From a virus, in IMG/VR virus record IMGVR_UViG_3300028558_000001, positions 112,661 through 176,660 of that record: 64,000 bases of DNA, one strand, 5' to 3'. Below, in pieces: positions 21,858 through 61,331 of the stretch; within the stretch, counting starts at the first letter, position 1, and each line of letters opens with the position of its first letter. Under the pieces are notes generated by a model that was not told where the DNA came from, did no database searches, and saw only the letters and a list, made by a program, of their open reading frames with translations. The position numbers and the translations under genes were made by a program.

Positions 21858-22208
21858 TTAATTCAAAACTTCAATCTTTAGATTACCAACTCCATCAAAA
21901 CCAAGAGCCTTTCGGCCACCATAGGTTAGATCAAGTTCAACGCCTTTTCGAAACGGACCACGATCTAGAACCGTTACTTGGAGTGTACGGCCATTCCGCA
22001 CATTTGTCAACAGCAACTTGGTCCCAAACGGGAAGTGTTTATGGGCTGCAATATGTGGATCATAAGCATTAAATGCTTTACCCGAAGCAGTACGATGAGA
22101 GCAACCATCCCCGATACCGTACCACGTTGCCTTACCATAATAAACTCTATTGGCATATGCCGGTGAAGTTAAAAGAAGCGATAAAGCAATTATTAGAATG
22201 TTCTTCAT
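21858..22208 (-). CDS. RlpA-like secreted double-psi beta-barrel protein
   Basis: 116 residues: signal peptide (about 1-19, ending S-P-A-Y-A), then A-T-W-Y-G near 28, H-R-T-A-S-G-K-A-F-N near 38, F-G-T-K-L-L-L-T-N near 61 and V-T-V-L-D-R-G-P-F near 78. These are the RlpA barrel signatures. Bacterial RlpA acts on peptidoglycan glycans in the periplasm. The Asp-Arg-Gly-Pro catalytic loop is present. A phage copy could act in lysis or envelope remodelling. Its AAGGAG ribosome site lies inside a hairpin (22213-22233). Confidence 0.8.
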   Translation of the reverse strand: MKNILIIALSLLLTSPAYANRVYYGKATWYGIGDGCSHRTASGKAFNAYDPHIAAHKHFPFGTKLLLTNVRNGRTLQVTVLDRGPFRKGVELDLTYGGRKALGFDGVGNLKIEVLN

Positions 22209-22277: not shown

Positions 22278-22417
22278 TGGTCAAGTGTGATAGGGATCGA
22301 ACCTATATTTCCTCTAGTTAAACGTTGTCATATATTCCGGTTTCAAACAACGATGTTACTAACCATTGGAACTCCCGTTCTTTCGGCGGGGGTGTTTTCC
22401 ATTTCACCACACACTTA
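22278..22417 (-). tRNA. Unusual tRNA-like element of 140 nt (extended or interrupted)
   Basis: A 7-bp acceptor (AAGTGTG at 22416-22410 with CACACTT at 22289-22283, extended by a T-G pair), a perfect T-arm ATAGG-TTCGATC-CCTAT and a terminal CCA are present. The interior is about 50 nt longer than a class II tRNA. It contains a Leu-like D-arm (GTG..CAC), a CCCG/CGGG hairpin, a second D-arm-like segment (AATGGTTAGTAAC) and a CGTTGT/ACAACG stem with an 18-nt loop. No anticodon can be assigned with confidence. Confidence 0.5.
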
Positions 22418-22422
22418 TTTGT

Positions 22423-22493
22423 ATCGGCATCCTATCAATTAGACGACTCGGGGGATTGTCCCCCAAGACTGGATTTGAACCAGTATCTCCGAT
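22423..22493 (-). tRNA. Candidate circularly permuted tRNA (3' half before 5' half)
   Basis: Read on the minus strand, the order is: ATCGG, AGAT, T-arm ACTGG-TTCAAAT-CCAGT, acceptor 3' strand CTTGGGG, GACAAT linker, acceptor 5' strand CCCCGAG, TC, D-arm GTCT-8-GGAT, G, CCGAT. Both acceptor strands pair (7 bp, one wobble) and CCGAT pairs with ATCGG as a 5-bp anticodon stem. Re-ordered, it matches a tRNA-Glu/Gln-type scaffold, lacking only a contiguous anticodon loop. An 8-bp GAAA-loop hairpin (22501-22520) lies just upstream. Confidence 0.5.
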
Positions 22494-22500
22494 TCTTTTG

Positions 22501-22520
22501 ATACCAAGTTTCCTTGGTAT
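22501..22520 (-). other. 8-bp hairpin with GAAA tetraloop between tRNA-Ala and the permuted element
   Basis: ATACCAAG-GAAA-CTTGGTAT, perfect pairing. It starts three bases after the tRNA-Ala CCA and ends seven bases before the permuted tRNA core, so it would cap the 5' side of that RNA. Confidence 0.65.
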
Positions 22521-22523
22521 AAA

Positions 22524-22599
22524 TGGTGGACCTGACAGGAATCGAACCCGCGACCTAGTGCTTGCAAAGCACCCGCTCTCCCTACTGAGCTACAAGCCC
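22524..22599 (-). tRNA. tRNA-Ala (UGC)
   Basis: Acceptor GGGCTTG/CAGGTCC (two wobble pairs), anticodon loop TTTGCAA, T-loop TTCGATT, A discriminator, encoded CCA. Confidence 0.92.
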
Positions 22600-22901: not shown

Positions 22902-23138
22902 TTAATAGTACTTATAACTCTCAGAAGGATTTTCTGATTTCAGAATTCTACCTTCCTCAATCTTTTTTCTTGCATCATTAATACAACTTTCTGTAAAAGA
23001 AAAAAGATAATCACATGGTCTAGTCATTTCCTCAGAAGTTTTTGGCAATGCTTCTAAAAATAACTTTAGATTAGCAATAGCAACTTCAATATCTTCCTCG
23101 GCAGAATTAGAACCGATATTCATTGCGAAATAACCCAT
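22902..23138 (-). CDS. Hypothetical protein (78 aa)
   Basis: The frame is open to 23261, but GGAGG five bases before the ATG at 23138 marks that start. Helical protein with a K-L-F-L-E-A-L-P segment and a charged C-terminus. Not recognised. Confidence 0.55.
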   Translation of the reverse strand: MGYFAMNIGSNSAEEDIEVAIANLKLFLEALPKTSEEMTRPCDYLFSFTESCINDARKKIEEGRILKSENPSESYKYY

Positions 23139-23333
23139 ATCATCCTCCAAATATAACATGAAGGTTTCCAATCTGTCTGAGCATACAGTCCACCTACAAA
23201 CCTCTATCCTCTTTAAACTGCGCCCCGTCCTCTTACCCTTAGACAACCCTATTAGAAGCATTTATAAACCTTGCTGCTTCTAACATCATCGGACCTTGAT
23301 AGATGTACTTACCAAGGCGTGGGGCTTATAAAC

Positions 23334-60212: not shown

Positions 60213-61331
60213 TCAATTCATAAACCTTTCCTTATATTCTTTCCAGTCAGAGTCCTTAGAAGTGGCCCGTCGAATAGTTTCGATAGCTAATTCACGACCT
60301 GTCTTATGACCATCCATTAAGGAGAACATAGCTGACTTCTGTTCGGAAGTCAACGTCTTGGAGAACTCCGATAAGGCAAATGTCTTCTTTGAATTGAACT
60401 TCTTCTCAACATATAGATATAAATCAATAATATTAAGGTTAGTTTGTTCAATCCTTTGCTCAACGAACTTCTCTAATTCATGAACTTTCTTAATGTCGTC
60501 CTCTAATAGCATTGGAATTAGATCATCAATCTCTTCATTGAGAATCATTTGAACAACACGATATTCCTGCGTGATTAGGTCGCGTGAATGGTGGCGAAGG
60601 CAATACCAATCTGACTTGGCTTTGACCATATCACCATCTGGAAACTGGACAACAAATCCTTCCTCTCCTTCAAGAGCCTTAGCTACTTTCATAAGTTCAT
60701 GAATAGAAGAAAAAGCATTATATCTCTTAACTACTGGAATATCAAAGATCACTCCAATATCTACTAAGGTTTGATGAGAAGAATATGCTCCTGTATGCAT
60801 ATCACGGATAGCCAACAGAACCAGATCATCTTGAGGATAATCAAGAACAATGCGATTCTTATTAGAAGTCCATTCAAAACATGGCGTAAATCCCCATTTA
60901 ACAGTAGTTGCCATAAGATTTTGGTAATCACGTTTACCAAAAATGAATTCTTCGGCCTGTAATGAAGTATCTGTGATACCCATTTTGGTGCATAAACGGA
61001 TTTGTTCATTGATCATTACTGGATGAATCATAGACCCATCCAGTTTAGGCATGATCGTATGCGGTTCATCAAACTTATGTGCAATTACATTAGGTTGAGT
61101 TTCCGCAGTCTGTCCGATATTGAACCATTTATGGAAAGGACGAGCAATGATGTTTCCGTTTTTATCAAACTTAATACCACGACATTCCCTAGCATATATG
61201 TTATCAAAGGTATTTTCAGTCGAAATCACGTAGTTAAGGACAGTGTAATCACCCTTATCCACGACAATGATTTCTGGTTTATCTTTGATATGAGGAAGAA
61301 CATCATCAATATGTCTGATTAACGGAAACAT
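60213..61331 (-). CDS. rnlA: RNA ligase 1 (Rnl1-type)
   Basis: 372 residues from the ATG at 61331 (AAAGGA upstream). R-E-C-R-G-I-K-F near 50, the adenylation motif M-P-K-L-D-G-S near 94, F-E-W-T-S near 145 and E-G-F-V-V-Q near 226. T4 Rnl1 (374 residues) repairs nicked anticodon loops with Pnkp. Here the kinase-like protein is at 13810-14301. Length and motif order match T4 Rnl1 well. Confidence 0.92.
   Translation of the reverse strand: MFPLIRHIDDVLPHIKDKPEIIVVDKGDYTVLNYVISTENTFDNIYARECRGIKFDKNGNIIARPFHKWFNIGQTAETQPNVIAHKFDEPHTIMPKLDGSMIHPVMINEQIRLCTKMGITDTSLQAEEFIFGKRDYQNLMATTVKWGFTPCFEWTSNKNRIVLDYPQDDLVLLAIRDMHTGAYSSHQTLVDIGVIFDIPVVKRYNAFSSIHELMKVAKALEGEEGFVVQFPDGDMVKAKSDWYCLRHHSRDLITQEYRVVQMILNEEIDDLIPMLLEDDIKKVHELEKFVEQRIEQTNLNIIDLYLYVEKKFNSKKTFALSEFSKTLTSEQKSAMFSLMDGHKTGRELAIETIRRATSKDSDWKEYKERFMN

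What the first reader, a model, noticed from the sequence alone, without database searches (positions are those of the whole stretch)
22423..22520. Candidate circularly permuted tRNA gene in a phage tRNA cluster
Seen: on the minus strand a 71-nt core has, in order, ATCGG, a 4-nt variable segment, a canonical T-arm (ACTGG-TTCAAAT-CCAGT), the acceptor 3' strand CTTGGGG, a GACAAT linker, the acceptor 5' strand CCCCGAG, TC, a D-arm (GTCT..GGAT), G, and CCGAT. The acceptor strands pair (7 bp) and CCGAT pairs with ATCGG. All four tRNA helices are present, but the 3' half comes first. The linker replaces the usual CCA, and no canonical anticodon loop with U33 can be drawn, so the molecule could be a pseudogene, a nicked tRNA needing end joining, or a tRNA-like RNA. 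Permuted tRNA genes are known from red algae and some archaea; I know of none in phages. A kinase-like protein, Rnl1 and an RlaP-like enzyme in the same genome could in principle join the ends.
Basis: partly seen in the sequence, partly recalled or inferred. Interest (0 to 1): 0.85.

Follow-up and report, generated by a model that had tools for sequence, protein, structure and literature searches.

The report
Permuted tRNA-like RNA in phage tRNA cluster
In the middle of a phage's tRNA genes lies a small RNA gene that folds like a tRNA cut open at the anticodon and sealed shut at the amino-acid end; it is a real, structurally constrained RNA built like the tRNA-mimicking part of bacterial Y RNAs, but it is very unlikely to decode codons, and it belongs to a wider, largely uncharacterised set of such RNAs in phages.

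Summary
Minus strand 22493-22423 reads, in order, anticodon-stem 3' strand, T-arm, acceptor 3' strand, 5-nt linker, acceptor 5' strand, D-arm, anticodon-stem 5' strand. A covariance model built from 19 permuted cores in other contigs, window held out, scores it 61.9 bits (E 1.8e-24). Tandem tRNAs top out near 49 bits. The reading as a tRNA gene needing end-joining is not supported: no U33 can be formed, no CCA is encoded (18 of 19 neighbouring tRNAs encode it), no bulge-helix-bulge motif is seen, and the contigs of four similar elements lack Rnl1. The same architecture occurs beside Ro60/Rsr (TROVE) genes in phages and bacteria: it is the layout of the tRNA-like module of YrlA Y RNAs. The window's version lacks the closing Y stem, and no TROVE gene was found in its 176.7-kb contig. 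It follows tRNA-Ala, carries a 5' hairpin, and has a probable counterpart (L540) near the same DPBB gene with the same five helices; both acceptor-end pairs are replaced in compensated fashion. Best reading: a non-decoding, tRNA-derived structured RNA released by processing of flanking tRNAs. Its partner and function are unknown. New variant of a known kind.

The parts
22423..22493 (-). permuted tRNA-like core (71 nt): open anticodon stem, T-arm, closed acceptor hairpin, D-arm
   Evidence: (61.9 bits, E 1.8e-24)
22489..22493 (-). ATCGG, anticodon-stem 3' strand (comes first); pairs with 22427-22423
22468..22484 (-). T-arm ACTGG-TTCAAAT-CCAGT
22447..22467 (-). closed acceptor hairpin CTTGGGGG-ACAAT-CCCCCGAG; linker in place of discriminator + CCA
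   Evidence: linker compared with L099 (ACCATAACAT) and L023 (ACAAT)
22429..22444 (-). D-arm GTCT-AATTGATA-GGAT (G19 replaced by A)
22423..22427 (-). CCGAT, anticodon-stem 5' strand (comes last)
22501..22520 (-). 5' hairpin ATACCAAG-GAAA-CTTGGTAT, 3 nt after the CCA of tRNA-Ala; probable counterpart L540 has a 10-bp hairpin of different sequence at the same place
22524..22599 (-). upstream canonical tRNA-Ala(TGC); its 3' processing would set the 5' end of the element (inference)
22278..22416 (-). downstream tRNA-like gene with acceptor, D-arm, T-arm and CCA, no canonical anticodon loop and a ~65-nt insertion; not called by ARAGORN or Rfam
60603..61187 (-). Rnl1-type RNA ligase domain (PF09511, E 6e-29); candidate accessory only under the end-joining rival

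Best explanation
A non-decoding structured RNA gene derived from a circularly permuted tRNA and built like the tRNA-like module of YrlA Y RNAs, but without the Ro-binding closing stem. SHOWN: the permuted four-helix junction, its recurrence in many phages with compensated stems, identity of layout with cores beside Rsr genes, a 5' hairpin, and a probable counterpart in a related phage. INFERRED: it is transcribed with the tRNA cluster; cleavage after the CCA of tRNA-Ala and RNase P cleavage at the next tRNA-like RNA free a ~105-nt RNA (hairpin, 7-nt linker, cloverleaf closed at the acceptor and open at the anticodon stem). It needs no ligation. In the window, where the T-loop is canonical, it probably acts as a tRNA mimic that engages elbow- or T-arm-binding factors: PNPase-type partners as for YrlA, tRNA-modifying enzymes, or tRNA-cutting defence nucleases that it could occupy because it has no anticodon loop to cut. 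Which partner is unknown.
For: Held-out covariance score 61.9 bits from a model of 19 cores in other contigs (132 cells with changes on both sides against 42 +- 6 in shuffles). The same model hits next to bacterial Rsr genes in loci with no canonical tRNA: L300 59.8 bits, L296 52.7, L307 52.1, and phage contigs with permuted cores carry TROVE. Comparable stem-less cores sit 0, 5 and 4 nt after the CCA of a canonical tRNA in L106, L108 and L412. Probable counterpart in L540 (DPBB neighbour 70% identical): same five helices in the minimum free energy fold, acceptor pair 1 C-G to U-A, acceptor pair 7 G-C to A-U, hairpin and T-stem rewritten yet paired. No U33, no CCA. YrlA definition and PNPase binding: PMC8394870; proposal that the YrlA tRNA-like domain may inhibit an anticodon nuclease: PMC7790460.
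Against: No expression data. No TROVE in the contig, so the Y RNA pathway as such is absent or host-encoded. G19 of the D-loop is A, and L540 has lost T54, A58 and the D-loop GG, so an elbow-dependent role is weakened or L540 is decaying. L540's element is not similar by blastn and scores only 17.6 bits with the model; homology rests on position, segment lengths and pairing. Covariation in the model set is partly circular because some members were chosen for pairing.
Confidence: 0.55

Rival explanations
1. A true circularly permuted tRNA gene: the phage Rnl1, perhaps with the kinase-like protein, joins the ends in the anticodon loop to a circle, and RNase P and 3' processing open the acceptor linker to give a working tRNA.
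For: Rotated sequence is called a tRNA by ARAGORN; Rnl1, RlaP and a kinase-like protein are encoded; known precedents use circular intermediates and intervening sequences as short as 1 nt (PMC3978253).
Against: No join of native flanks gives U33; no CCA although 18 of 19 neighbours encode it; no flank helix for a bulge-helix-bulge (p 0.315); the natively joined circle is not called a tRNA; no Rnl1 in the contigs of L106, L108, L065 or L079 (some are fragments); elbow lost in L540.
Confidence: 0.08
2. A Y RNA (YrlA) proper that works with a host-encoded Rsr; the Ro-binding stem has been replaced by the 5' hairpin.
For: Same core architecture as cores next to Rsr genes; hairpin immediately 5' of the core in window and L540; Y RNAs have been reported bioinformatically in mycobacteriophages and proposed in a Listeria phage (PMC12282133).
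Against: No TROVE in the 176.7-kb contig, whereas GTTACTTC-type phage Y RNAs have one in 12 of 13 contigs; no GTTACTTC motif; no 5'-3' closing helix; the host is unknown.
Confidence: 0.17
3. A non-functional remnant: tandem duplication of a tRNA gene followed by loss of the outer halves, the pairs surviving only by descent.
For: Linker GACAAT resembles a decayed discriminator-CCA-spacer (comparison); phage tRNA clusters hold many odd tRNA-like pieces; D-loop G19 lost.
Against: The loss would have to stop exactly at the end of the anticodon stem on both sides, in the window and again in L106, L108 and L412; stems remain fully paired with double changes in the probable counterpart L540; fold z -5.4.
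Confidence: 0.17

Closest known systems
YrlA Y RNA tRNA-like module (Chen 2014; Wang 2018, PDB 6CU1; summarised in PMC8394870)
   Same: T-arm, closed acceptor arm and D-arm in the same permuted order; module joined to the rest of the RNA at the anticodon-stem side; the model built from phage cores also hits beside bacterial Rsr genes.
   Different: No closing 5'-3' Y stem, no GTTACTTC motif, no Rsr gene in the contig; fully paired 5-bp anticodon stem; sits inside a tRNA cluster after a canonical tRNA; 5' hairpin instead.
Circularly permuted tRNA genes of algae and Thermofilum pendens (PMC3978253)
   Same: 3' half precedes 5' half, short intervening sequence between acceptor strands, ends near the anticodon loop.
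   Different: No bulge-helix-bulge at the ends, no U33 or usable anticodon, no encoded CCA; bacterial virus.
Permuted tmRNA (Rfam RF04321)
   Same: tRNA-like part in permuted order.
   Different: Window element reaches only 13.8 bits against a cut-off of 47; no mRNA-like tag region; has a normal D-arm.
CAGCAA-type permuted tRNA-like RNAs of phages (described here)
   Same: Same permuted core, same setting in phage tRNA clusters, no TROVE gene (0 of 24 contigs).
   Different: They have a 7-11 bp closing stem and a conserved CAGCAA motif, which the window lacks.

Membership tests
Circularly permuted tRNA gene | acceptor, T, D and anticodon helices formed by 3' half placed before 5' half | tested here: met
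Circularly permuted tRNA gene | anticodon loop with U33 after joining | tested here: not met
   eight joined 7-nt loops, none with U33 (sequences)
Circularly permuted tRNA gene | bulge-helix-bulge or other joinable structure at the ends | tested here: not met
   no flank-to-flank helix beyond chance (p 0.315)
Circularly permuted tRNA gene | circular intermediate and mature tRNA in cells | not testable with these tools
   needs RNA from infected cells
YrlA Y RNA | tRNA-like module with T, closed acceptor and D arms | tested here: met
   the same model hits beside Rsr genes
YrlA Y RNA | long stem pairing 5' and 3' ends (Ro/Rsr binding) | tested here: not met
   replaced by a local 5' hairpin
YrlA Y RNA | rsr (TROVE) gene in the genome | tested here: not met
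   PF05731 no match at E <= 10; contig completeness unknown, a host Rsr is possible
YrlA Y RNA | binding to Rsr and PNPase | not testable with these tools
   needs biochemistry
Functional decoding tRNA | CCA end encoded or exposed 3' end | tested here: not met
   linker ACAAT closes the acceptor; 18 of 19 cluster tRNAs encode CCA
Permuted tmRNA RF04321 | score above the family cut-off | tested here: not met
   13.8 against 47 bits

The most novel reading that the evidence does not exclude
Phages carry a Ro/Rsr-independent class of stable, permuted tRNA-derived RNAs inside their tRNA operons, the window element being a hairpin-led form, in which the same cloverleaf is encoded in different circular permutations (opened at the anticodon or Y stem, or at the acceptor) and serves infection as a tRNA mimic rather than a decoder.
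Probability: 0.35. Interest if true: 0.8.

Novelty: new variant of a known kind. Interest (0 to 1): 0.58.

Why it matters
Standard tRNA finders miss these genes, and the only known relatives are the tRNA modules of Y RNAs, which work with Rsr. Finding permuted cores without Rsr, embedded between canonical tRNAs and kept by compensated changes, suggests that phage tRNA clusters encode tRNA mimics as well as decoders, and makes a direct test possible: do these RNAs bind PNPase, tRNA-modifying enzymes or tRNA-cutting defence nucleases? It also corrects the more exciting but unsupported reading of a ligase-dependent permuted tRNA gene in a phage.

Tried and rejected
Rfam at gathering score and at E <= 10: no family fits. 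Permuted tmRNA: 13.8 bits, rejected. End-joined permuted tRNA: rejected on U33, CCA, flanks and companions. Group I permuted intron-exon idea: rejected, the flanks (about 30 nt upstream, 6 nt downstream) are too short for intron halves. Y stem from flanking sequence: no helix beyond chance. Relatives by the hypothetical protein 22902-23261: none. Copies in 40 contigs of major-head-protein relatives: none above the tandem-tRNA background. Isolate phages by 71-nt blastn: only T-arm matches. Pattern CCCGAGTCGTCTA preceded by a T-arm: only L412, a permuted core with one A.C mismatch in the acceptor. RtcB as a companion: only in L024 and L065 contigs. MAFFT alignment of window and L540 does not register the 5' hairpins, so hairpin correspondence rests on position and folding.

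Full report
WHAT IS THERE. The stretch was re-read. On the minus strand, between tRNA-Ala (22599-22524) and a degenerate tRNA-like gene (22416-22278), lie: TTT, hairpin ATACCAAG-GAAA-CTTGGTAT (22520-22501), CAAAAGA, then a 71-nt core (22493-22423): anticodon-stem 3' strand ATCGG, variable AGAT, T-arm ACTGG-TTCAAAT-CCAGT, acceptor 3' strand CTTGGGGG, linker ACAAT, acceptor 5' strand CCCCCGAG, TC, D-arm GTCT-AATTGATA-GGAT, G, anticodon-stem 5' strand CCGAT; then ACAAAT. The minimum free energy fold is exactly the hairpin plus the four-helix junction (-38.5 kcal/mol, z -5.4, 0 of 200 shuffles as stable). ARAGORN and Rfam list nothing here. The window is part of a 176,660-base virus record with T4-like head, portal and sheath proteins.

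IS IT MORE THAN CHANCE. A pattern scan of viral contigs for a T-arm closely followed by a D-arm returned mostly tandem tRNAs, but also other contigs with the same permuted order and different, compensated stems. Nineteen such cores, window excluded, were aligned; the permuted pairs show 132 cells with changes on both sides against 42 +- 6 in shuffles, and slid registers fall to 21-38. A covariance model from them finds the held-out window element at 61.9 bits, E 1.8e-24, filters off; the next place in the genome is 36.8 bits. Tandem tRNAs reach at most about 46-49 bits in tRNA-rich contigs. Of 447 T-arm-to-D-arm junctions, the window is one of six with 12 of 12 acceptor plus anticodon pairs; random half combinations reach this with frequency 2.9e-4. 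Caveat: some members of the model set were selected for pairing, so covariation within that set is partly circular; the window score is not.

WHAT KIND OF THING. Several of the phage cores lie in contigs with an ORF that matches TROVE (Ro60/Rsr): contigs of L024, L014, L099, L086 and L047. A single scan of bacterial genomes for Rsr relatives gave 15 loci, and the phage-built model hits next to Rsr in loci that hold no canonical tRNA at all: L300 3838-3911 (59.8 bits, Rsr from 4001), L307 3864-3934 (52.1), L296 3806-3877 (52.7), also L297 (55.8). This is the known setting and architecture of YrlA Y RNAs: a tRNA-like domain with D, T and acceptor arms, attached through a long 5'-3' stem, tethering Rsr and PNPase (PMC8394870). 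The permuted cloverleaf is therefore not unprecedented; it is the layout of the YrlA module. Phage Y RNAs are also on record: the paper on Listeria phage CKA15 states they were identified in mycobacteriophages and proposes them for its own Rsr-encoding phage (PMC12282133).

WHERE THE WINDOW DIFFERS. It has no closing stem between its flanks (p 0.315; many comparators have one), no GTTACTTC motif, and its contig has no TROVE match even at E <= 10. GTTACTTC-type cores have TROVE in 12 of 13 contigs; a second phage type with a closing stem and a CAGCAA motif has it in 0 of 24, including contigs of 165-425 kb (Fisher p 7e-9). The window falls in a third, stem-less group found directly after the CCA of a canonical tRNA: L106 (0 nt), L108 (5 nt, and 9 nt before the next tRNA), L412 (4 nt). 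None of these three contigs has TROVE.

COUNTERPART. One relative carries a DPBB (lytic transglycosylase-like) protein 70% identical to window 21858-22208: L540. The two loci share tRNA and gene order in part. About 370 nt before that gene, 3 nt after the CCA of tRNA-Glu, L540 has a 10-bp hairpin, 6 nt, then TTCGG AACT GTGTG-GTCGTGC-CACAC TTTGGGA ATAGAC TCCCGAA TC GTTC-AAGTGTA-GGAC G CCGGG, then CCAAAT. Its minimum free energy fold has the same five helices. Between the two, acceptor pair 1 goes C-G to U-A, acceptor pair 7 G-C to A-U, anticodon pair 31-39 U-A to G.U, and the T-stem and 5' hairpin are rewritten yet paired. T54, A58 and the D-loop GG are gone in L540. Caveats: blastn finds no significant similarity for the element itself, the model gives it only 17.6 bits, and MAFFT does not register the hairpins. 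Correspondence is probable (my estimate about 0.75), not proven.

WHY NOT A PERMUTED tRNA GENE. Known permuted tRNA genes are opened by bulge-helix-bulge splicing, ligated to a circle and cut at the acceptor (PMC3978253). Here the rotated sequence is called a tRNA with any 7-nt loop, but the natively joined flanks are not, and no join gives U33. CCA is missing although 18 of 19 cluster tRNAs encode it; GACAAT looks like a decayed discriminator-CCA-spacer, as L099 keeps ACCATAACAT. The phage does encode Rnl1, an RlaP-like protein and a kinase-like protein, but contigs of L106, L108, L065 and L079 show no Rnl1, so the ligase is not a steady companion; several of these are fragments.

MOST LIKELY WORKING. 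Inferred: transcription with the tRNA cluster, release by maturation of the flanking tRNAs, no ligation, action as a structured tRNA mimic. Candidate partners are PNPase (as for YrlA), tRNA-modifying enzymes (YrlA is a substrate of DusA and TruB, PMC8394870), or tRNA-cutting nucleases; the authors of PMC7790460 suggested the last for YrlA. A phage with Rnl1 plausibly faces anticodon nucleases, so a mimic without an anticodon loop would make sense, but nothing here tests that. The loss of elbow residues in L540 counts against an elbow-dependent role or marks that copy as decaying.

VERDICT. Observation confirmed; interpretation partly supported; new variant of a known kind (permuted tRNA-like module as in YrlA, but stem-less, Rsr-less on the contig, tRNA-operon-embedded and hairpin-led).

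Noticed in passing
L023, L030, L054, L082, L085, L103, L112, L125, L329, L356, L388, L482, L493, L496, L508 and others: A family of phage RNAs with a 7-11 bp closing stem (typically UAGR... paired with ...YCUG), a conserved CAGCAA motif just inside the 5' strand, and the permuted tRNA-like core; about 33 good examples, none of 24 contigs has a TROVE gene. Looks like a Y-RNA-like family independent of Rsr.
   Followed up: partly
L023:479, L030:5837, L054:3091, L071:1671, L075:4695, L112:1064, L125:1080, L235:1691, L400:8953 and 9185, L483:10157-10714: The same CAGCAA element also occurs as a normal-order tRNA gene: the acceptor is open, often with CCA, and the stem that is open in the other form is closed by a 2-7 nt loop in place of the anticodon arm. 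One RNA thus seems to exist in two circular permutations, sometimes on the same contig.
   Followed up: partly
L065:4076-4217, L079:6007-6126, L048:1984-2143: Permuted cores in direct tandem, separated by one to about a dozen nucleotides; in L079 the first core has almost no acceptor helix.
   Followed up: no
window 22416-22278 (-): tRNA-like gene with acceptor, D-arm, T-arm and CCA but a 9-nt anticodon loop without U33 and a ~65-nt hairpin insertion in the variable region; missed by ARAGORN and Rfam.
   Followed up: partly
window 22274-22209 (-) and L540:2933-2996: Conserved leader of the DPBB gene with a D-arm-like segment and a hairpin that holds the Shine-Dalgarno sequence (ACTCCCTTTAACAAGGAGT); could be a translational switch.
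   Followed up: no
window 18290-18215 (-): tRNA with anticodon CTA (named Pyl by ARAGORN), a likely amber suppressor at the end of the cluster.
   Followed up: no
L024 contig (G002:60635-63562): Two Y RNA-like permuted cores, a TROVE gene and RtcB in a row: a phage-borne version of the bacterial RNA repair operon.
   Followed up: no
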